Below are positions 25,526 to 41,479 of a stretch of 64,000 bases of DNA, piece after piece. Source of the DNA: Ignavibacteria bacterium RIFOXYC2_FULL_35_21 (GTDB lineage: Bacteria; Bacteroidota; Ignavibacteria; Kapaibacteriales; UBA2268); NCBI GenBank assembly GCA_001804705.1, contig MHAY01000071.1, positions 1 through 64,000 of the forward strand, given 5' to 3'. A program made the translations under genes and the position numbers. The notes beneath the pieces were generated by a model that had not been told where the DNA came from, made no database searches, and saw only the letters and a program-made list of their open reading frames with translations. Each line of letters opens with the position of its first letter. The first letter of the stretch is position 1.

Positions 25526-28500
25526 ATGCAATCGAAATCAATTCCCAGAAAGGGATTTTCGCGCATATCAATTAAAATTGCTTCACCTGACGATATACTC
25601 AACAGGTCAAATGGCGAAGTAACAAAACCGGAGACAATCAACTACAGGTCTTTCAGGCCTGAAAAGGACGGATTGTTCTGTGAGAAAATTTTCGGTCCGA
25701 TTAGAGACTGGGAATGCGCCTGTGGTAAATATAAACGAATAAGGTATAAGGGTATCGTTTGCGACAGATGCGGAGTTGAAGTTACACAGAAATCTGTCAG
25801 GCGTGAACGTATGGGGCATATTATGCTTGCTGTCCCGGTTGTTCATATTTGGTTCCTGAGAACTCTCCCAAGTAAAATCAGTGCAATTCTCGGGATGCCT
25901 ACAAAGGATATTGAAAGGATTGTCTATTATGAATCATATATTGTTGTTCAACCCGGAAAAACAGGTTTACAACAAAAAGACTTATTAACAGAAGACCAAT
26001 ATCTGGATATATTGAGTAATCTGTCCGAAGAAGAATTAAATATGGATGATGATGACCCTAATAAATTCATTGCCCACATTGGCGGCGAAGCAATTAAAGA
26101 ATTACTAAAGAGGGTTGAACCGGAGACATTATATGGTGAATTAAAAGCATTGCTCAAGGAAGAGACTTCACAGCAGAAAAAAACAGATTTACTTAAGAGG
26201 CTTCGTACTCTCGATTCCTTCAGGCAGGCACAGAGAAATAATCTGAATAACCGTCCCGAGTGGATGGTCCTTGATGTTGTGCCGGTAACTCCTCCCGACC
26301 TCAGACCCCTCGTGCCTCTCGAAGGAGGCAGGTTTGCAACTTCCGACCTGAATGATTTATATCGCAGAGTTATTATCAGAAATAACAGGCTTAAGAGACT
26401 GATTGATATTAAGGCTCCTGAAGTTATCTTAAGAAATGAAAAGCGAATGCTTCAGGAATCGGTTGATGCACTTTTTGACAACAGCCGCCGTGCTGTCAGA
26501 AGCGAATCGCAGCGTGCTTTGAAATCACTTGCAGACACATTGAAAGGTAAAACAGGAAGGTTCAGGCAGAATCTACTCGGTAAGAGAGTTGACTATTCAG
26601 GCCGTTCGGTAATTGTTGTAGGTCCTGAACTGAGGCTTCATGAATGTGGCCTTCCTAAAGACATGGCTGTTGAATTATTCAAACCTTTTATTATCAGGAA
26701 ACTGATAGAAAGGGGACATGTTAAAACAGTCAAGAGTGCAAAGAAAATGGTTGAGAGAAAGACTAACGAAGTTTGGGATATTCTTGAAAAAGTGATTGAA
26801 GGGCATCCCGTTCTGCTCAACCGTGCGCCGACATTACACAGGCTTGGTATTCAGGCATTCCAGCCAAGACTGATTGAAGGTAAAGCCATTCAGCTGCATC
26901 CATTGGTCTGTACTGCTTTCAACGCTGACTTCGACGGTGACCAGATGGCGGTTCACATACCTATAAGTTATGAAGCTCAGCTTGAAGCTTTACTTCTGAT
27001 TTTAGCTCCTCATAATATCATGCACACTCAGAATGGCGACCCAATTGCCGTACCTTCGCAGGATATGGTGCTTGGTGTATATTATCTAACAAAAGTAAGG
27101 CATGAAGCACAGGGCGAGGGCAAGATGTTTTCTTCTTCAGACGAAGTTATTATTGCTTATAATTCTGGTATAATAAATTTACATGCCAAAATTAAAGTCA
27201 GGATTAACGGCGAGCTAATTGAAACAACAACAGGCAGAGTATTATTCAACAAAATAGTACCTGAAGAATTAGGATTCCTAAACGAACTTCTTGCAAAGAA
27301 AAGATTGAGGCAAATTATTGGTATTTGTTTTAGGAAAGCTGGGCTTGCAAAGACTGTTGAATTTCTCGATGCTCTGAAAGATATAGGATTTAAGTTTGCT
27401 ACAAAGGGTGGTATGTCGGTTAGTATTAACGATGTTCTTGTACCAATTGATAAGTTGGTTATCATTGGCCAGGCACAGAAGAAAATAGATGAAATTGAAT
27501 TTGCTTACCAAAACGGCGTGATAAGTAGTGGTGAGAGATATAATAAAATTATAGACACATGGTCAACTGCAACAAACAGGGTGGCGGATAAGTTATACTC
27601 AGAATTATCCAAGGCTCAACAGGGATTCAATACATTTTGGATGATGCTCGATTCACAGGCAAGAGGTTCTAAAGAACAGATACGTCAGCTTGCCGGTATG
27701 CGAGGCTTAATGGCAAAACCAAAAAAATCTCTTTCAGGCTCGACCGGTGAATTAATTGAAAATCCGATTATTGCAAACTTTAAGGAAGGTTTGTCAATAC
27801 TTGAATATTTTATATCTACACACGGTGCGAGAAAAGGTCTTGCCGATACGGCTTTGAAAACAGCTGATGCAGGTTATTTGACAAGAAGGCTTCATGACGT
27901 TGCACAGGATGTTATTATATCTGATAATGACTGTGGGACAATCCGTGGTGTCGATATGACAGCCCTTAAGGATGGAGAAGAAATAAAAGAACCGTTGTTT
28001 GAACGAATTCTCGGCAGAGTTACACTCAAAGATATTGAGAATCCATTAACCGGAGAAATCATTGCTCGTGCCACTGATGTGATTGACGAGGAAATAGCGA
28101 ACAGGATTGAGCAGACCTCAATCGAATCGGTTACTATTCGTTCCGTTCTAACATGCGAGTCGAGGCAGGGTGTTTGTGCCAAATGCTATGGACGTAACCT
28201 TGCAACCGGACAGCTTGTTGACACAGGCGAAGCAGTCGGTACGATAGCTTCCCAGTCAATCGGAGAGCCTGGGACACAGTTAACGCTAAGAACCTTCCAT
28301 ACGGGTGGTACGGCTTTGCTGGTTGCTTCGCAGTCCTCTGTCGTAGCTAAGTTCGACGGACAGATTCAATTTGAAAATGTAAGGATTGTCAGCTATGAAG
28401 GAGATGAAGGTGAGACCCAACTTGTTGTCAGCCGCAGCGGTGTCATAAATATCGTTGACCCCGATAGTAATAGAACATTGACTAAATATGATGCAACTTA

Positions 28501-29809
28501 TGGGGCAATTCTTCATGTCAAGAATGGATTTTTAATAAAGAAGGGCCAGATGATTTACGAATGGGACCCCTATAACGCTTCAATAATTACCGAAGTCGAA
28601 GGAAGAATCCGTTACAGGGACCTTGTCCATAACGTTACTTACCGTGAAATCAATGATGAACAGACAGGCCATATAACAAAGGTTGTTGTCGAATCACGCG
28701 ACAGGACAAAATCACCGACAATTGATTTAATTGATGACTCCGGTAAAGTTCTGAAATCGTATAGTATTCCGACAAAAGCTCAGCTTAGAGTTGAAGATGA
28801 TGATGTTGTCGGAGTGGGTACACCACTTGTCAAAATTCCGAGAGACCTCGGCAGAATGCGTGATATTACAGGTGGTTTGCCCAGGGTTACCGAACTATTT
28901 GAAGCAAGAGCTCCGCAAAATCCGGCAATCGTTTCGGAAATTGACGGTATTGTTTCATTTGAAAAGATGAAGAGAGGACAAAGAATAATAATCGTAACAA
29001 GCAGCGACGAAAAAACGAAGCTTGAATACAGCGTACCGATTGGTAAATACATTCTCGTTCAGGAAGAAGATTTCGTTCGTGCAGGTGACAGGCTTACCGA
29101 AGGTTCGATTAATCCTCATGATATATTACGTATCAAGGGAGCTAATGCGGTTCAGGAATACCTTGTGAACGAGATTCAGGAAGTTTACCGTATGCAGGGT
29201 GTCAAGATTAATGATAAGCATATTGAAGTCATAGTAAGGCAGATGCTACAGAAGGTAAAAATAGTTGATTCAGGTGATTCTTCGATGCTTGAAAACGAGA
29301 ACATTGATAAAATCAAGTTCCTGGATGAAAATATGGAATTGAAGAATCAGGTAGCTGTCATTGAACCCGCTGATTCCAAGATGAAGGTTATGCAGCTTGT
29401 TGACAAGAGAGTAATGAGAAGCATTAACCAGGAATTGAAGAAGAAAACGAAGAAAACTGCAACAACCCGTAATGCCGAACCTGCTATTGCAGAGCCTATT
29501 TTACTCGGTATTACTCAGGCATCGTTGACAACTGAAAGCTGGCTCTCTGCTGCATCATTCCAGGAAACCACAAGAGTGCTTTCGGACGCTTCCGTTTCAG
29601 CGAAAATTGACCACCTGATTGGCTTGAAAGAAAATATTATCCTTGGCCAGCTTATACCTGCAGGTACAGGTTTAAGGACTTACCAGGATATGATGATTGA
29701 CAGCCAGGTTGGTAATATCTTCGGAACAAAGAAAGTAGAACCCGAAGAAGAAGAAATAGACGAAGATGATATTCCTGTAGCTAAGGGAGTTAAGTTTATT
29801 TACAAATAA
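25526..29809 (+). CDS. rpoC: DNA-directed RNA polymerase subunit beta'
   Basis: 1427 residues. The N-terminal zinc finger is CACGKYKR...CDRCGVEV; the catalytic loop is [12 protein letters not shown] with three Asp for Mg2+; the second zinc site is [13 protein letters not shown]; the trigger loop region has [19 protein letters not shown]. The start has GAGGAG eight nucleotides upstream. The C-terminus ends with an acidic stretch and GVKFIYK, as in Bacteroidota relatives. It is the last gene of the block and is followed by a strong terminator. Confidence 0.97.
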
Positions 29810-33508: not shown

Positions 33509-34573
33509 ATGCTCGAAAAGATTAAAGAATTGCTTGGTAAAGACGCACAAAATTTACTTGAATTCAACTCATCGAAAATCAAAAAGGAACAGCTTGAACT
33601 GCCGGGACCTGACTTCGTGGACAGGGTGTTTGCCCATTCGGACAGAAACAACCGTGTGCTGGGAAATTTACAATGGTTTTACATGCATGGCAGGCTTGCC
33701 GGAACAGGATACATGTCAATTTTACCTGTTGACCAGGGGATTGAACATTCAGCAGGTGCGAGTTTTGCAAAAAATCCGATTTACTTTGACCCGGCAAAGA
33801 TTATTGAATTAGCAATCGAAGGCGGATGCAATGCAGTTGCTTCGACTTTTGGTGTGCTGGGGATTTGTGCGAGAAAATACGCTCACAAAATTCCGTTTCT
33901 TGTTAAGGTTAATCATAATGAACTTCTCACTTACCCGAATAAGTTCGACCAGATTATGTTTGGAAATATTCAGCAGGCTTATGACATGGGTGCCGCCGCT
34001 GTGGGAGCGACTATTTACTTCGGCTCACCCGAAAGCGGAAGGCAGATTGTGGAAGTTGCCGAGGCATTTGCCTTTGCCCATGAGTTGGGTATGGCAACTG
34101 TGCTATGGTGCTATCTGCGTAATCCGGAGTTTAAAAAAGATAAGGATTATCATGTATCTGCCGACCTGACCGGACAGGCAAATCATCTTGGTGTTACTAT
34201 TCAGGCGGACATCATCAAACAGAAACTGCCCGAAAACAATGGCGGCTACACTGCGATGAATGCAGGTGGTGTAAGCTACGGAAAGATTGACAATAAGGTT
34301 TATACAGATTTAACTTCAGACCATCCCATTGACCTTTGCCGTTACCAGGTAGCGAACTGCTACATGGGAAAAATCGGCTTAATCAACAGCGGTGGAGCTT
34401 CGGGTGCAAACGACTTCGCCGAAGCCACAGCCACAGCCGTGATTAACAAACGTGCCGGTGGAATGGGCTTGATTTCAGGCAGGAAGGCATTCCAGCGTCC
34501 CATGGTTGATGGAGTGAAACTACTGAACACAATACAGGATGTGTATCTGTGTAAGGATGTTGGGGTGGCGTAG
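33509..34573 (+). CDS. fbaB: Class I fructose-bisphosphate aldolase (FbaB/DhnA type)
   Basis: 354 residues. [20 protein letters not shown] marks the beta-strand start of the archaeal-type class I aldolase; [12 protein letters not shown] contains a strand Lys; [37 protein letters not shown] supplies the active-site region, and [12 protein letters not shown] binds phosphate. It splits fructose 1,6-bisphosphate through a Schiff base, without metal. It is single, between the glyA repeats and the restriction island. Confidence 0.93.
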
Positions 34574-34613
34574 AGTAGAATTTGTGAATATTAAAACCGT
34601 TTGTGTAAGGTAA

Positions 34614-34708
34614 TGTCACCCTGAGCGAAGTCGAAGGGTGTCATTCTGAGCGAAGTCGAAGGGTGTCATTCTGAGCGAAGTCGAAGAATCTCCTTGTGTC
34701 ATTCTGAA
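34614..34708. repeat. Tandem TGTCATTCTGAGC-type repeats (25 bp period)
   Basis: Three units start at 34614, 34639 and 34664, each TGTCAYYCTGAGCGAAGTCG plus AAGGG or AAGAA, and a truncated one (TGTCATTCTGAA) starts at 34697. There are no spacers between the units. Single copies or relatives occur near 41440 and 51752. Repeats of this family are widely scattered in intergenic DNA of many bacteria. The array lies directly before the restriction-modification genes. Confidence 0.8.
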
Positions 34709-34726
34709 TATATTTCTGAATCTATG

Positions 34727-34756
34727 TTTATCACAATAATAAAATTTGTAAATTTG
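34727..34756 (+). promoter_or_regulatory. Possible promoter of the restriction-modification operon
   Basis: TTT (34727-34729), 19 nt, TAAATTTG (34749-34756). The -7 element is perfect for TAnnTTTG; the upstream element is weak. The endonuclease ATG follows 26 nt later. Confidence 0.45.
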
Positions 34757-34781
34757 GAAAAAATATTTTCTTATTTAAGTA

Positions 34782-36584
34782 ATGAAACCTTGGAGTATAT
34801 CTACTACAGTTAGAAACCCTGAAAGAATAAGAGACTTTCTTGGTGTTTTAAAGCATTTGGAGGGAAAACCTTTCAATACAGATAATCAAGAGAAGTATCA
34901 AATCTTATTAATACAGAACAAATTTTATAAGCCATTAAATATTCCAATTAAATTCCAAAAATATTATGACAATCCAGAATTAGAAATACCTTTTAAAATT
35001 GCATCAGAAATTTTTTATCATCAAGATTATGAAGACCCTGCTATGCGCGGAAGACAATCTGTGAATCCATTAAATAAATTGGGTTTTTCAATAGCTCGAG
35101 AACGGGAAGGAAACATTATTATCACAGAACTTGGTAATCATTATATCTCAGGAGAATATGATATTGGTTATATTTTTTTTAAATCATTATTAAAACTTCA
35201 ATTTCCTAATCCTTGGAGTAGTGATTTCTCTACGAAAGATGGCTTTGATGTACAACCATTAATTTCAACAATGCACTTGATAAATAATGTCAATAAAAAA
35301 AGTGATAAAAAAGGTTTGACCCAAATTGAGTTTTGTTTGTTTGTACCAACATTAATAAATAATAATCTTATTGATTATTATGTAGAAATGATATTTAAAT
35401 ACCGCAAAGAAAGAAACAAAGACAAATTCATAAAAGATTTTGCAAAGGAATTTTATCAAACAAATAATCTCATTGATAAACAAATTAAAAATTTCTATGA
35501 GTATGGTGATAACATAATGCGGTATTTCCGCTTGACAAAATATTTTAAGGTAGCAACAGATAAATTCGGATCCGATTGGAGAATTGATTTTGAACCGTCA
35601 AGGAAATTAGAGATTGAATTAATACTGAATAAATTTAATGGACAATCTTTAAAATTTAAAAACAAAGATGAATTTCTTAATTATATTTCTGATATAACAC
35701 TGCCCAAACTCCCGTCTGAAGATTTAGTAAACTTAAAAGCTATTGCACATTCACTTGTTATTAATATTTTAAAATTTGCAAAAGATAATAATGTCTTACT
35801 TTCAAATCATGAGAAAAATATTATTGAATCAAGAATAGATGATGCTTCAAAAAAAGAAGTTGAAGAATTGATTAGTAATGTTCGAAAAATCAATCTTGCA
35901 TTAATCGAAAGGCAAAATAAAAGTTATTTATTATATAATGTTGATAAACTTAAAAGTATAATATCCGATTTAAAAAATTCCAAAATATTAAAAAAATATG
36001 CACCCGAGCAATTTGAAAAAATTATCGCAGAAGCATTAAAAATTATCAATGATGAAATACGAATCCAACCAAATTACCCTGTTGATGATCAAGGAGAACC
36101 TATCGATCATGCATCGGGTGGTAAACCAGATATTGAGTGTTATTATAATTCATACAATGCTATTTGTGAAGTTACTCTAGATTCTTCCAGAAATCAATGG
36201 ATGAGGGAATCTCAGCCAGTAATGAGACATCTTTGGGAATTTGAAAAGAGTAGTTCAAATACATTAAATTATTGTCTTTTTATCGCTCCAAAAATCCATA
36301 TCGACACTGTTTTTTATTTTTGGACATCAATAAAACATGGTTATGCCAGTCCTTCGGATAATATAATAACTCAAAAAATTGTTCCAATTTCATCCGAACA
36401 ATTTGCCATGATTTTAGAGACATGTTTAAAACTTATCGAAAAAGGAAAAAGATTTTCACACAATGAAATCGGTGAACTATATAATGGAGTTATCAGTTTG
36501 AAAGATAGTGTAAATAGCCATACTGAATGGTATAAAAATATTCCACAAATAATTGAAGAATGGAAAAGAAAAATTGTTGCATAA
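34782..36584 (+). CDS. AlwI-family type IIS restriction endonuclease
   Basis: 600 residues. The opening WSISTTVRNPERIRDFL, followed by LGVLKHLEGKPF, is the start of RE_AlwI family nucleases (Pfam PF09491), whose founding member recognises GGATC and cuts outside it. A candidate PD-(D/E)xK core is GGKPDIEC at about 445-452 and ICEVTLD about 15 residues later, with Thr in place of the final Lys. The gene leads a tight operon: its TAA overlaps the ATG of the first methyltransferase (TAATG). Specificity for GGATC is inferred from the family. The gene itself contains GGATCC (35568-35573) and two further GATC sites, unlike host genes. Confidence 0.88.
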   Translation: MKPWSISTTVRNPERIRDFLGVLKHLEGKPFNTDNQEKYQILLIQNKFYKPLNIPIKFQKYYDNPELEIPFKIASEIFYHQDYEDPAMRGRQSVNPLNKLGFSIAREREGNIIITELGNHYISGEYDIGYIFFKSLLKLQFPNPWSSDFSTKDGFDVQPLISTMHLINNVNKKSDKKGLTQIEFCLFVPTLINNNLIDYYVEMIFKYRKERNKDKFIKDFAKEFYQTNNLIDKQIKNFYEYGDNIMRYFRLTKYFKVATDKFGSDWRIDFEPSRKLEIELILNKFNGQSLKFKNKDEFLNYISDITLPKLPSEDLVNLKAIAHSLVINILKFAKDNNVLLSNHEKNIIESRIDDASKKEVEELISNVRKINLALIERQNKSYLLYNVDKLKSIISDLKNSKILKKYAPEQFEKIIAEALKIINDEIRIQPNYPVDDQGEPIDHASGGKPDIECYYNSYNAICEVTLDSSRNQWMRESQPVMRHLWEFEKSSSNTLNYCLFIAPKIHIDTVFYFWTSIKHGYASPSDNIITQKIVPISSEQFAMILETCLKLIEKGKRFSHNEIGELYNGVISLKDSVNSHTEWYKNIPQIIEEWKRKIVA

Positions 36585-37384
36585 TGGAAACAAACAAAAT
36601 ATATAAAGGTGATTGTGTTAATATTCTAGAAACAGAAATTGATAAAAATTCAATTCCATTGATTTTTGCCGATCCACCTTATAATCTTTCTGGTAAGTCA
36701 TTAGATTTAGCAAATAATACAACTGGTGGCGCATATTACAAGGTAAATGAGAAATGGGATACTTATAATTATGAGGATTATCTTAATTTTACTGAAAAAT
36801 GGATTTCATCTTGTAAGTCCGTTTTATTTCCTAATGGAAGTTTATATGTATCTTGTACACAACATAATATTGCCGAAATCATTATTATCTCAAAAAAGTT
36901 AGAATTGAAATTAAATAATATAATTACTTGGTATAAAGTTAATGCCATGCCTAACATAACTAAAAGAACTTTCACACATGCTACAGAATTTGTTTGTTGG
37001 TTCGTTAAGGGTAAAAATTGGATTTTTAATTACGATGCTGTTAAACAATTCAATCCGCAAAAAACAAAAGAAGGACAGAGTAAACAGTTGAGAGATTTTT
37101 TAAACTTTATAGAGTTACCAATTGTTCAGGGTAAAGAGAGGATTAGAGGAGAAAACGGTAGAGCATTGCATCCTACACAAAAACCAGAAAAACTTTTAGA
37201 GTTAGTTATTTTAGCATCATCAAATGAGAATGATATAGTCCTAGACCCGTTTTTTGGTATGGGAACAACCGGTGTTGTTGCTCAAAAATTAAAAAGAAAT
37301 TGGATAGGTATTGAAGAAAAAGATGATTATACAGCCTTAGCACAGGAAAGATTAAATTCAAATAAAATTATATTAAATGAGTAA
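36584..37384 (+). CDS. DNA methyltransferase 1 of the AlwI-type system (beta class, DPPY)
   Basis: 266 residues from the ATG at 36584, which overlaps the endonuclease stop codon; the frame is open 24 bp further upstream. Catalytic motif IV, FADPPYNLSG, is at about 28-37 and comes before the SAM motif DPFFGMGTTG (about 220-229), the order of beta-class N6-adenine/N4-cytosine enzymes. HPTQKPEKLLELV precedes the SAM motif. It probably modifies one strand of the asymmetric site. It is paralogous to the next gene (same DPPYNLSG, HPTxKPEKLLE and DPFxGxGTTG). Confidence 0.9.
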   Translation: METNKIYKGDCVNILETEIDKNSIPLIFADPPYNLSGKSLDLANNTTGGAYYKVNEKWDTYNYEDYLNFTEKWISSCKSVLFPNGSLYVSCTQHNIAEIIIISKKLELKLNNIITWYKVNAMPNITKRTFTHATEFVCWFVKGKNWIFNYDAVKQFNPQKTKEGQSKQLRDFLNFIELPIVQGKERIRGENGRALHPTQKPEKLLELVILASSNENDIVLDPFFGMGTTGVVAQKLKRNWIGIEEKDDYTALAQERLNSNKIILNE

Positions 37385-38204
37385 AATAGAATTATATCAT
37401 GGCGATTGTATTGAATTAATGCAATCATTAAAACCAAAAAGCATTGATTTAATCTTTGCTGATCCCCCCTATAACCTTTCTGGTAATGGTTTTTTGACAA
37501 CACAAAATGGCAAAGTTGCAAAATTACATAAAGGTGATTGGGATATTATTGAGGATATTCATTTATTTAACGAAAATTGGATTAGTCAATGTATACGGGT
37601 TTTAGCTGACACAGGTACACTTTGGATTAGTGGTACATTACATAACCACCCTTCTGTGGGTGTAATCCTAAAAAAATTAGGTTTATGGATTATTAATGAT
37701 GTGATTTGGTTCAAACCAAATGCCACTCCGTTATTATCAACAAATCGGTTAGCACCATCAACCGAATTAATTTGGGTAGCCAGTAAATCAAAAAAATATT
37801 ATTTTGATTATACAATGGCAAAAATTATTAATGATGGCAAACAGATGAAAAATATGTGGGTAATTAATGCTGAGAAACACAAAACTATTCATCCCACAGA
37901 AAAACCAGAGAAACTTTTAGAAAGAATTTTATTAATTGCAAGTAAAGAAGGTGATGCAATTTTAGATCCGTTTATGGGAAGTGGAACAACAGGAGTTGTT
38001 GCAAAACGATTAAATAGAAATTTTATCGGTTACGAGATTAGTAAAGAATATTTTGATATAGCAAATGTAAGAATTGGTATCGTACAACCGATAAAAGAAT
38101 TGATTACCGCAATTGAAAAAGAACAAAATCGAAATGACAAACAATATGCTTTAGTAATGGAAAAGAAAGGTAAATATAAAAGCCCAAAAAAAAAGGTTTC
38201 ATAA
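37377..38204 (+). CDS. DNA methyltransferase 2 of the AlwI-type system (beta class, DPPY)
   Basis: 275 residues. Motif IV FADPPYNLSG is at about 27-36, followed by HPTEKPEKLLERIL and the SAM motif DPFMGSGTTG at about 197-206. The start overlaps the previous gene by 8 bp. Systems with asymmetric targets need one enzyme, or one domain, per strand, and two paralogous enzymes would meet that need here. The C-terminus is Lys-rich. Asp-Pro in motif IV is encoded GAT-CCC, creating a GATC that host genes avoid. Confidence 0.9.
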   Translation: MSKIELYHGDCIELMQSLKPKSIDLIFADPPYNLSGNGFLTTQNGKVAKLHKGDWDIIEDIHLFNENWISQCIRVLADTGTLWISGTLHNHPSVGVILKKLGLWIINDVIWFKPNATPLLSTNRLAPSTELIWVASKSKKYYFDYTMAKIINDGKQMKNMWVINAEKHKTIHPTEKPEKLLERILLIASKEGDAILDPFMGSGTTGVVAKRLNRNFIGYEISKEYFDIANVRIGIVQPIKELITAIEKEQNRNDKQYALVMEKKGKYKSPKKKVS

Positions 38205-38259
38205 AATAATAATTATTAAATTTTTAAAACCATTTTAAAATCATTTTAAAACCGTTTTC

Positions 38260-38290
38260 TTGACATATCCTCCCCACAATCTTATCTTTG
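38260..38290 (+). promoter_or_regulatory. Strong Bacteroidota-type promoter without a coding gene downstream
   Basis: TTG (38260-38262), 20 nt, TATCTTTG (38283-38290): a full match to TTG-N20-TAnnTTTG, with the same spacing as the tRNA promoter at 17538. No ORF follows; the sequence from about 38295 folds and ends in a terminator-like element. Confidence 0.75.
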
Positions 38291-38294
38291 CACC

Positions 38295-38392
38295 GCATGT
38301 TCTTTGCAAAACAATGTCGGGCTGTATCAGCCGAAGCCGGTTGTTGTGTAACGTAAATCCCAATTCATCGGGAGGGTTTTCTTTCTAAAGCT
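38295..38392 (+). ncRNA. Candidate small RNA
   Basis: About 100 nt between the promoter at 38260-38290 and a T-rich tract. ACAA...TTGT with inner CGG...CCG and GGCTG-TAT-CAGCC form a stacked hairpin at about 38311-38347. A 3' stem AAATCCC/GGGAGGGTTT around AATTCATC ends in TTTTCTTTC, like a terminator. It is richer in G+C than its surroundings. It is not 4.5S or 6S RNA by the motifs I know. I cannot name it. Confidence 0.45.
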
Positions 38393-38598
38393 GAAGTTAT
38401 AATTCATTGAAATTCTAAATTTAAAAAAAGAAAATTAAGCATGTAGTTAGTCTTTTGGGCATAAATTTTAATATATTTAAGCACATTCAATCACTTATAA
38501 TTAAAAGAATTAAATAATAATTTTGAGCAAAAGAAAAATCATGTCAAACATGCTCAAATTGCCCAAATCTGCCCAATTTTGTCTCTCAATAACCAAAA

Positions 38599-38641
38599 AA
38601 CTCTGTGAAACTCCGTGCAAAACTCTGTGAAACTCTGTGGT
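38599..38641. repeat. CTCYGTG tandem repeat
   Basis: Four units of CTCTGTG or CTCCGTG separated by AAA-type linkers (about 11 nt period), then GTAAAAT. This resembles an interspersed intergenic repeat seen in many environmental bacteria. Between 38393 and 38841 I see only this, AATTGAAAATTGG-type repeats near 38680-38725 and the ATTCGTA array. Confidence 0.6.
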
Positions 38642-38801
38642 AAAATTTGCTTTATCCTCAATTCTGCATTTTAAATTTAGAATTGAAAATTTATTTAAAA
38701 TTGAAAATTGGAAATTGAAAATTTTGAAAAACCTGCTCCGGATGCACAAAATGCACGTTTTGGCTCTATATATCCAAATTCTCTAAGAAAATTTAACCAC
38801 C

Positions 38802-38832
38802 ATTCGTAATTCGTAATTCGTAATTCGTAATT
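38802..38832. repeat. ATTCGTA 9-nt tandem repeat
   Basis: ATTCGTAATTCGTAATT continues for about 3.5 periods of 9 nt. The preceding 29 nt (from 38773) match the spacer at 41401-41435, so the repeat belongs to a longer duplicated intergenic segment. Confidence 0.7.
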
Positions 38833-38841
38833 ATTTTTTGG

Positions 38842-39411
38842 CTACCACTCAAACAAGACGTAGTTGAGGTTTGCCATTATTGAAATTAATGATTTTGAGG
38901 TTTCGGCTATGTTATAAAACTTTACTTCGGCTCCGATACCAAATTTTTTACCAAGCTTCAAGTCGTATTGTCCTGAGAGCATATATCCGAATTCAAAGCT
39001 GTTGCTTTTGGATTCACCTGTATTATCAGAGATTTTTGAGCTTATATAATAATATCCGATACCTGTATTAATTCTAAATGGCGTCGAACCATAAGAGAAA
39101 ACAACTAATATGGGATAGGCATCCAAGTCTGCGTTAATGTCTTCTGTTTTCAAACTTGCAATTCCGAGGAAACCTGATTCAATACCAACGCTAAGTATGT
39201 GTTCGGTTAACCATTGCGCCCTGAAGGACAAAGCAATTTTATTTTTCTGAATATCATCCGAATAATCCGTATAGAATTTTGATAAGCCGAAAGAATACCC
39301 GCAGGAAGCGGTAAGAAGCACCTTGTAGGATGAATCGGTTTTCACATAAGACATTGCTTCTTGATATAGCAGTGCAGACAATAATAATATTATAAAAACT
39401 TTGTATTTCAC
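38842..39411 (-). CDS. Small outer-membrane beta-barrel protein
   Basis: 189 residues with a signal peptide (about 1-21). The mature part consists of alternating strands of about ten residues (VLLTASCGYSFGL, IALSFRAQWL, SNSFEFGYMLSGQYDL, FGIGAEVKFYNI) and ends in an aromatic residue (NYVLFEW), consistent with an 8-stranded OmpW/OMP_b-brl type barrel. Function unknown. It is the third gene of an operon behind the glycerophosphodiesterase lipoprotein, 6 nt away. Confidence 0.68.
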   Translation of the reverse strand: MKYKVFIILLLSALLYQEAMSYVKTDSSYKVLLTASCGYSFGLSKFYTDYSDDIQKNKIALSFRAQWLTEHILSVGIESGFLGIASLKTEDINADLDAYPILVVFSYGSTPFRINTGIGYYYISSKISDNTGESKSNSFEFGYMLSGQYDLKLGKKFGIGAEVKFYNIAETSKSLISIMANLNYVLFEW

Positions 39412-39417
39412 TTTAAA

Positions 39418-40641
39418 TTACTTTGTATAAAATTCGAAAGCAAGGATAGAAGGGTAGTTTGTAACGATACCGTCAAACTCACCTTCAGCATAATAACTCT
39501 TCATAAATTTCACATCATCAATTGTCCAGACAAATACTTTTACTCCTTCGTAGTGCATCTGCCTTACCTCATTGAGCTGTGTGCCAAGCGTCCAGGAGGC
39601 TCCCCAGTATTCTGATTTTGTTTTTCTGACATCATCAACACTTATTTCGCAAAGTGAATTGACATTATTGAAATAATTATTATCAATAAATTCATTTTTT
39701 ATTGTTTCATTTGTAATGCCAACCACAATATCAATATTTCGGTTGACAGCCACTGCTTTTAATTTATTAGCTTCAATAATCGGGATGATGTATTTTAGAG
39801 AATTAAATGATTTAATATCCAGCCACACAAGACGAATTCCGGTTTTATTAATAACAAGGTCCAAAGTTTCTTCTAATGAAGGAAGTTCTTCTCCATGTTT
39901 CAACTTGCACAGCTTTTTCAAATGAGAGTAATTGTAATTCTCGATAGGACCGGTCAGAAAATCTCCGTTAACCAGTCTCGAGCTTATAAAATCATCATGG
40001 AATAATACAGGTACATTATCTTTAGTAATTCTAACATCAATTTCAATTGCATTTGCTCCTAATGATTCAGCTAGCTCAATCATTTCGAGACTGTTTTCGG
40101 ATGCAGGAAGTTTATCGGAATTTCTGCCTCCTCCGCGATGGGCAATGATATAAAATGTGCTGTCAGGTTTGAGTTTTTCTTTAAAAGAAATTACAAAGCT
40201 TTTCTTATTATTACCCACATTAAAAATACCTCTCATTGTTATTTTATCAGATTGTAAACCGCTTAGAATTTCTTTTGCGCCTTCATTATAATCTATGACA
40301 AACCTCGAAAGCCCGGTTACCTGGTTAGGAAGTGCTCTGTAGTATCCTTCCAATACAATGTTATTATTGACGATTCCTGTTTCAAAAATGAAAAAATTAA
40401 TTGACTTCCCACAGTACATTGATAAACTTGATTTATTCGATTTAATCACACATAAGTCACCCAATATATTATTACCTTCAATTACAGTATAAACACCATT
40501 AAGATTCGATTGATAATCCTGATTCATCGGCAATGAACCTATAAGTTGGCTTTCATCACCGTAACCCGGATAACTCAGGTCAATAATATTCTGACAGCTC
40601 TGGTAAAGAAGGAAAATTATTAAGAAAATAAATATTCTCAT
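39418..40641 (-). CDS. Glycerophosphodiester phosphodiesterase, lipoprotein
   Basis: 407 residues. The lipobox LYQSC places the lipidated Cys at 16. An N-terminal beta-rich domain of about 140 residues precedes the GDPD domain at about 160-405: IIAHRGGGRNSDKLPASENS with catalytic His-Arg, EIDVRITKDNVPVLFHDD with metal ligands and the second His, and VWTIDD and DGIVTNYPS at the end. It hydrolyses glycerophosphodiesters to glycerol 3-phosphate and an alcohol at the cell envelope. It overlaps the upstream gene by 4 bp. Confidence 0.88.
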   Translation of the reverse strand: MRIFIFLIIFLLYQSCQNIIDLSYPGYGDESQLIGSLPMNQDYQSNLNGVYTVIEGNNILGDLCVIKSNKSSLSMYCGKSINFFIFETGIVNNNIVLEGYYRALPNQVTGLSRFVIDYNEGAKEILSGLQSDKITMRGIFNVGNNKKSFVISFKEKLKPDSTFYIIAHRGGGRNSDKLPASENSLEMIELAESLGANAIEIDVRITKDNVPVLFHDDFISSRLVNGDFLTGPIENYNYSHLKKLCKLKHGEELPSLEETLDLVINKTGIRLVWLDIKSFNSLKYIIPIIEANKLKAVAVNRNIDIVVGITNETIKNEFIDNNYFNNVNSLCEISVDDVRKTKSEYWGASWTLGTQLNEVRQMHYEGVKVFVWTIDDVKFMKSYYAEGEFDGIVTNYPSILAFEFYTK

Positions 40642-41345
40642 ATTATGAATCCTACTAGAAACTCAGGGATGAATAGCCACACCTGGTTTGTTGTGTAAGC
40701 AAGCCAGCTTTGGTAATAATATCTTGTATAATTTAATTTAACACCTAACATGAATACATTTTCGTTCCATAAAGGTTGTTCCAGTATCAATGATGACGAA
40801 ACATTGACAATCTGGTCTTTTTGGGTAAGCACTTCAATGTCACCGATGCTTTTAGACAAATGAAACATCAAGGCGGCTTCGTTTTTCAAAGTTGCCCGAA
40901 GTTCACCAAAATCATACCCAATTGCAATTGTCGGGTAATTAATCCAACCATATATTGAAGAATTAAAGTAATCAAAGTAAGCAAAACCAAACCAATAAGC
41001 CATGTTGTCGCCAACAGAGAATGAAAACTTATCAATGCTAAAATGCCAGCTCGCACCTGCAGAAATGTGATTTGTAAGCACATTTGTATGAATTATTCCA
41101 TTAATTGAAAAGTTAAATGGAAGTCCGAATCTGCCGTGATAAAATAACATTGGTACTTGATTGATTTGGTCATCAACTATAAATTTCGGTAATTTCCCGA
41201 TTGTTATACCAACGCTATTTACATATTTCCAGTTATTAAATGGTTCTGGATAATACAGGTATTTATCTGTATCGGCAACCTCCTGAGAAAGCAAACTGAA
41301 ATTCGCAATAATTATTAAAAAAAATGTTGATAAAAATATTTTCAT
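40638..41345 (-). CDS. Outer-membrane beta-barrel protein, unknown function
   Basis: 235 residues with a signal peptide (ends SLLSQ at about 21). The mature part is rich in Tyr, Trp and Phe in alternating strand patterns (GRFGLPFNFSINGIIH, FSFSVGDNMAYWFGFAYF, LRATLKNEAALMF) and ends FLVGFII, typical of an outer-membrane barrel. It is the first gene of a three-gene minus-strand operon with the glycerophosphodiesterase, so it may import or anchor its substrate; that link is inference. Confidence 0.65.
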   Translation of the reverse strand: MKIFLSTFFLIIIANFSLLSQEVADTDKYLYYPEPFNNWKYVNSVGITIGKLPKFIVDDQINQVPMLFYHGRFGLPFNFSINGIIHTNVLTNHISAGASWHFSIDKFSFSVGDNMAYWFGFAYFDYFNSSIYGWINYPTIAIGYDFGELRATLKNEAALMFHLSKSIGDIEVLTQKDQIVNVSSSLILEQPLWNENVFMLGVKLNYTRYYYQSWLAYTTNQVWLFIPEFLVGFII

Positions 41346-41400
41346 TATAAATATACCAAATGTATTATATCTAAAGTAAAAATTTTGAGGATTTAATCAA

Positions 41401-41479
41401 TCCAAATTTTCAAAGAAAATTTAAACGCCATTCGTATCATGTCACCCTGAGCGTAGTCGAAGGGTCGTAATTCGTAATT
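41401..41479. repeat. Duplicated intergenic segment carrying an inserted TGTCA repeat
   Basis: TCCAAATTTTCAAAGAAAAT...GCCATTCGTA matches 38773-38809, and the shared ATTCGTAATTA end follows at about 41469-41479. Between the two halves (about 41437-41465) lies a single TGTCACCCTGAGCG-type repeat unit that the other copy lacks. Confidence 0.7.

What the first reader, a model, noticed from the sequence alone, without database searches (positions are those of the whole stretch)
34782..38204. Host DNA strongly avoids GATC; the restriction-modification island does not
Scanning the whole window by eye, I find 13 GATC tetramers. Six lie in the 3.4 kb island (35569, 36087, 36105, 36671, 37461, 37965) and only seven in the other ~60 kb (1414, 11684, 44493, 45966, 52378, 61154, 62597). 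At a rough 37% G+C about 200 would be expected outside. Avoidance reaches codon choice: rpoC 26045-26059 encodes Asp-Asp-Asp-Asp-Pro as GAT GAT GAT GAC CCT, switching to GAC before C, while both island DPPY motifs use GAT-CC. The host lineage seems to have been under long selection against GATC, and the island looks recently acquired from a genome without it. AlwI's GGATC alone would not explain loss of all GATC.
Basis: partly seen in the sequence, partly recalled or inferred. Interest (0 to 1): 0.85.

Follow-up and report, generated by a model that had tools for sequence, protein, structure and literature searches.

The report
Genome-wide GATC avoidance, except in newcomers
This Ignavibacteria-related bacterium and its close relatives have purged the four-letter word GATC from almost all of their DNA, most likely because restriction enzymes cut it, and recently acquired genes, including the restriction cassette in this window, stand out because they still contain it.

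Summary
The window holds 13 GATC sites at the listed positions. Outside the cassette there are 7 against 181 expected (O/E 0.039, the lowest of all 256 tetramers); inside there are 6 against 12.1 (O/E 0.50; P = 7e-5). A 302-kb sample of the same genome gives 45 against 884 (O/E 0.051). Asp before a C-initial codon is GAC in 75 of 76 cases, against 24% elsewhere.

All four sampled species of the genus avoid GATC. Across 75 genomes the trait is patchy, with at least 8 changes on a tree. GATC gains remain suppressed on the branches within the genus (4 against 22.7 expected).

Two sister species lack the insert. It spans 6.9 kb, not 3.4 kb: an AlwI-type cassette carrying all six GATCs, plus a GATC-free GDPD block that looks like a separate event. 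About twenty other methyltransferase or restriction loci here are, taken together, GATC-rich too.

Best reading: selection by GATC-cutting type II restriction, with fast turnover of the systems; the known phenomenon of restriction-site avoidance in an extreme form. AlwI is not the cause. The responsible system was not identified in this genome. One sister species carries an M.DpnA-type plus MutH/Sau3AI-type pair, itself probably recent.

The parts
34573..41468 (.). Segment present here and absent from sister species G002 and G003, where about 93-98 bp join the flanks
   Evidence: blastn of window against L061 and L064: alignments end at 34572 and resume at 41468/41469
34614..34698 (+). Three tandem copies of a short repeat (TGTCA..CTGAGCGAAGTCGAAGGGTG); a fourth copy lies at 41440-41474, at the other end of the insert
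   Evidence: the repeat finder family D2
34782..36584 (+). AlwI-family restriction endonuclease, 600 aa; GATC at 35569, 36087, 36105
   Evidence: PF09491 4.4e-72; N.BspD6I in PDB 6.2e-28
36560..37384 (+). Beta-class N6_N4 DNA methyltransferase M1, 274 aa; GATC at 36671
   Evidence: PF01555 8e-60; 39% identical to the G003 M.DpnA-type methyltransferase
37377..38204 (+). Beta-class N6_N4 DNA methyltransferase M2, 275 aa; GATC at 37461 and 37965
   Evidence: PF01555 4.7e-58; 44% identical to the G003 M.DpnA-type methyltransferase; 68-70% to AlwI-type cassettes in G058, G137, G044
38772..38808 (+). First copy of an intergenic motif that is single in G002 and G003; second copy at 41400-41436. The two bracket the GDPD block
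   Evidence: the repeat finder family D3 and junction sequences of G002 and G003
38842..41345 (-). Outer-membrane beta-barrel-like protein, GDPD phosphodiesterase and a 235-aa ORF; the surrounding 38205-41468 has 0 GATC against 7.0 expected
   Evidence: Pfam matches (the beta-barrel match below its cut-off); counts
25526..29809 (+). rpoC, host core gene without GATC; used for the relatives' tree and the codon example at 26045-26059
   Evidence: TIGR02386 above cut-off; counts

Best explanation
The host lineage has been under long selection against GATC by type II restriction-modification systems that cleave unmethylated GATC. Shown: GATC is almost absent in all sampled core DNA, gains of GATC are suppressed on the branches within the genus taken together, and the trait is patchy across the family. 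Inferred: the pressure came from GATC-specific type II systems that are gained and lost faster than composition changes, so most avoiding genomes show the footprint without a recognisable cutter. The AlwI-type cassette is one of many newcomers that have not yet lost their GATCs. Its own site (GGATC for the founding AlwI family) contains GATC, but it did not cause the avoidance.
For: O/E 0.051 over 302 kb. Codon switching, 75/76 GAC before C. All 4 genus members at O/E 0.05-0.12 and sister G015 at 0.03. At least 8 changes of strong avoidance on an rpoC tree of 75 genomes, a patchiness expected of mobile systems. Branch-specific GATC gains, matched for codon position and change type: 0/4.0 (G000), 2/3.7 (G001), 0/6.9 (G002), 2/8.1 (G003); pooled 4/22.7, P about 2e-6. 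GATC systems do occur in the family: DpnII + Dam + M.DpnA-type in G040 (O/E 0.07) and G026 (0.41); DpnII in G048 (0.25); M.DpnA-type + MutH-family endonuclease in G003 (0.12) and G010 (0.11). Turnover: the G003 pair sits at the locus where G000 has a different methyltransferase cassette, with flanking genes 90-94% identical. Rusinov et al. 2015 (PMC4687349): orthodox type II systems cause avoidance, long-lived ones most, and avoidance can outlast a lost system.
Against: No GATC endonuclease was identified in G000: no MutH family, only a 24-bit DpnII match, no DndC. Not every endonuclease family could be searched. Recognisable GATC systems do not predict O/E across genomes (Mann-Whitney P = 0.16). 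The G003 pair itself contains 4 GATCs in about 1.6 kb, so it also looks recent and is not shown to be the ancestral cause. On the G000 branch alone the suppression is modest (0 against 4.0, P = 0.02).
Confidence: 0.72

Rival explanations
1. Relic only: the ancestor had a GATC restriction system, it was lost before or early in the genus, and the deficit is now simply decaying.
For: No identified GATC cutter in G000. G001 shows no significant suppression (2 gains against 3.7). PMC4687349 documents traces of lost systems.
Against: Pooled gains on the four branches are 4 against 22.7 expected; G002 alone 0 against 6.9. O/E is still 0.05 although species differ at 12-18% of coding positions.
Confidence: 0.18
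2. The window's AlwI-type system caused the avoidance.
For: It is the only system in the window with a GATC-containing site, and its methyltransferases are M.DpnA-like.
Against: It is absent at this site from G002 and G003, which avoid GATC equally; surviving GATCs are not depleted in AlwI context, 21/45 against 37.7% expected; the cassette is itself GATC-rich.
Confidence: 0.02
3. Mutation bias, DNA mechanics or mismatch-repair signalling, not restriction, depletes GATC.
For: CTAG is low in most relatives whatever systems they carry, so non-restriction causes of palindrome loss exist. PMC4687349 raises methyl-directed mismatch repair as a possible factor for GATC.
Against: Patchy distribution with sharp differences between neighbours on the tree (G018 0.02 against G012 0.72; G064 0.14 against G055 0.69). 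MutH family is absent from G000, G001 and G002.
Confidence: 0.07
4. Phosphorothioation (Dnd) at GATC drives the loss.
For: From general knowledge, some Dnd systems mark GATC.
Against: DndC (TIGR03183) has no match in any of the four genus members; over cut-off only in G067 and G085.
Confidence: 0.01

Closest known systems
Restriction-site avoidance (Rusinov et al. 2015, PMC4687349)
   Same: Under-representation of a palindromic type II site over the genome; avoidance seen with and without the cognate system; GATC is named there as an outlier among sites
   Different: Very strong here (O/E about 0.05), visible in 75/76 Asp codons; examined here on a phylogeny and by branch-wise gains; the cognate system in this genome is not identified
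DpnII-type GATC restriction (Dam-type + M.DpnA-type methyltransferases, DpnII endonuclease)
   Same: Present in relatives G040 (O/E 0.07) and G026 (0.41)
   Different: Not found in G000; G003 pairs an M.DpnA-type methyltransferase with a MutH/Sau3AI-family endonuclease instead
AlwI restriction-modification (GGATC)
   Same: PF09491 endonuclease next to two methyltransferases, as expected for an asymmetric site
   Different: Specificity not tested; the Pfam family also holds GAGTC enzymes such as BspD6I (general knowledge)

Membership tests
Restriction-site avoidance footprint | Site O/E well below 1 against a Markov expectation (0.78 threshold in PMC4687349) | tested here: met
   O/E 0.039 in window, 0.051 in 302 kb
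Restriction-site avoidance footprint | Cognate orthodox type II system in the genome or its relatives | tested here: inconclusive
   Found in relatives G003, G010, G040, G026, G048; not identified in G000
AlwI restriction-modification system | AlwI-family endonuclease | tested here: met
   PF09491 4.4e-72
AlwI restriction-modification system | Two methyltransferases for an asymmetric site | tested here: met
   Two adjacent PF01555 proteins; same arrangement in G058 and G137
AlwI restriction-modification system | Cleaves GGATC | not testable with these tools
   Needs expression or methylome data
Sau3AI/DpnII GATC system in this genome | MutH/Sau3AI or DpnII endonuclease | tested here: not met
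   No PF02976 match; PF04556 only 24 bits over 84 profile positions
Dnd phosphorothioation | DndC | tested here: not met
   No TIGR03183 match in G000-G003

The most novel reading that the evidence does not exclude
In this family GATC avoidance is kept up over long times although no single GATC system stays: successive, unrelated GATC systems (DpnII type, MutH type, unknown types), or pressure exerted on exchanged DNA rather than by a resident cutter, act on one standing footprint, so the avoided word outlives every enzyme that enforces it.
Probability: 0.25. Interest if true: 0.65.

Novelty: new member of a known kind. Interest (0 to 1): 0.45.

Why it matters
It gives a clean, strong example of restriction probably shaping a whole genome down to codon choice, in a lineage rich in restriction systems, and a practical by-product: in such genomes GATC clusters mark recently acquired DNA. 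The genus, with four species and several relatives of different GATC status, would allow measuring how fast a restriction footprint forms and fades.

Tried and rejected
Dam-like methyltransferase at C94 as the GATC enzyme: its homologues sit beside EcoRV endonucleases, and G012 with an EcoRV pair has GATC O/E 0.72. ThaI-type pair at C36: association across genomes was strongest for CGCG, its named site, with GATC behind it. m4C-type methyltransferase at C90 with the 383-aa partner in G001 and G002: target word not resolvable, no PDB relative. Methyltransferase-nuclease-like fusion at C73: relatives also in non-avoider G012. Matching systems to words by association: the EcoRV control failed to recover GATATC, so the method is not diagnostic here. 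The pairwise gain test (0 against 19.7 for G001 to G000) overstates the expectation if the common ancestor already lacked GATC, so the polarised test is the one relied on.

Full report
Observation. All 13 GATC positions are exact. Outside the cassette 7 are seen and 181 expected (O/E 0.039, the lowest tetramer); inside, 6 against 12.1. A 302-kb sample of the same genome gives 45 against 884, O/E 0.051; next lowest are CTAG 0.22, GCGC 0.39 and GGCC 0.42. Most regions that I had fetched because they hold methyltransferases are left out of that sample (L012 is the exception), so it is not random, and the whole genome could not be counted. Codon choice follows: Asp is GAC in 75/76 cases before a C-initial codon and in 185/775 elsewhere; Ile is ATC in 5/213 after G and in 226/1123 elsewhere; no Arg or Gly codon ending in GA precedes TC.

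The insert. The cassette is an AlwI-family endonuclease with two beta-class methyltransferases. Sister species G002 and G003 have the flanks joined by about 93-98 bp, so 34573-41468 is extra here. The cassette holds all six GATCs; 38205-41468 has none against 7.0 expected. A motif single in the sisters is duplicated at 38772-38808 and 41400-41436, bracketing the GDPD block, and a dispersed repeat lies at both outer ends. I infer two events: arrival of the cassette, and gain of the GDPD block here or its loss in the sisters between the repeats.

Newcomers carry GATC. In 22 methyltransferase or restriction loci of this genome, including the cassette, 66 GATCs were counted against 139.9 expected (O/E 0.47), about ten times the core level. 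This list was drawn up by me from the searches and is not exhaustive. GATC clusters also mark a stretch with a serine recombinase (L025). Some systems are GATC-poor and so look resident: the ThaI-type pair, the Tsp45I-type pair, the C73, C94 and C90 methyltransferases. The genome had 17 PF01555, 7 PF02086 and 2 PF00145 matches; these are match counts, and some proteins match more than one family.

Relatives. In samples mostly of 20 kb or less around rpoC, all four genus members and sister G015 avoid GATC (0.03-0.12); others in the family range from 0.00 to 0.81 and class-level genomes are mostly 0.8-1.2. On an rpoC tree of 75 genomes strong avoidance (O/E up to 0.15, my cut-off) needs at least 8 changes. 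O/E from one 20-kb stretch is approximate.

Is the pressure current? With changes matched by codon position, base change and synonymy, and polarised by agreement of the other three species, GATC gains are 0/4.0, 2/3.7, 0/6.9 and 2/8.1 on the G000, G001, G002 and G003 branches; pooled 4/22.7, P about 2e-6. Pressure therefore continued during the genus's divergence. For G000 alone the evidence is modest (P = 0.02), and only about 9-10 kb of core genes were used. An earlier pairwise version gives larger contrasts but inflates the expectation.

Which enzyme? Not AlwI: surviving GATCs are not short of AlwI context (21/45 against 37.7%), and avoiding sisters lack this cassette at this site. No MutH-family endonuclease, no strong DpnII and no DndC in G000. 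G003 has an M.DpnA-type methyltransferase with a MutH-family endonuclease. I recognised the methyltransferase as M.DpnA-like from memory; the tool support is that it is 47% identical to one lying beside Dam and DpnII in G040. A distant relative of the endonuclease is annotated Sau3AI family. That pair carries 4 GATCs and looks recent, and at the orthologous locus G000 has another cassette. Recognisable GATC systems do not predict O/E across genomes (P = 0.16). I conclude that systems probably turn over faster than the footprint, as argued for restriction sites generally (PMC4687349), and that the enzyme behind this genome's footprint is unidentified.

Limits. Counts and samples come from draft genomes. 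Specificities of all systems here are inferred from family names; none was assayed. That MutH/Sau3AI, DpnII and M.DpnA act at GATC, and AlwI at GGATC, is general knowledge. Several association tests and candidate systems were tried before this account was settled; those that failed are listed under tried and rejected.

Noticed in passing
G000:C3 (L221:4017-6066) and G003:C47 (L225:4413-6058): Orthologous locus with flanking genes 90-94% identical holds different methyltransferase cassettes in two species: a restriction-system exchange spot.
   Followed up: partly
G000:C94, L008:8058-10793: M.EcoRV-type methyltransferase without an EcoRV endonuclease; an OLD-like AAA ATPase lies directly upstream.
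   Followed up: partly
G000:C90, L216:3152-6023: Where G001 and G002 have a 383-aa putative endonuclease after an m4C-type methyltransferase, G000 has a GmrSD_N protein holding two GATCs.
   Followed up: partly
window-wide and relatives: CTAG is also strongly avoided; on the branches of the genus its gains are 0/5.3, 0/4.3, 0/9.0 in G000, G001, G002 but 4/8.1 in G003.
   Followed up: partly
302-kb sample of G000: Hexamers GTCGAC (0/17), GTATAC (2/41), CAGCTG (4/40) and ATCGAT (7/60) are also strongly depleted, hinting at further restriction footprints.
   Followed up: no
L025 (G000:C60:1-20000): GATC-rich stretch (21 sites, O/E 0.40) with a serine recombinase, pentapeptide repeats and a polysaccharide synthesis gene: probably acquired.
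   Followed up: partly
G003:C108:7635-11912: rpoC of G003 reads with one in-frame TGA, possibly an assembly error.
   Followed up: no
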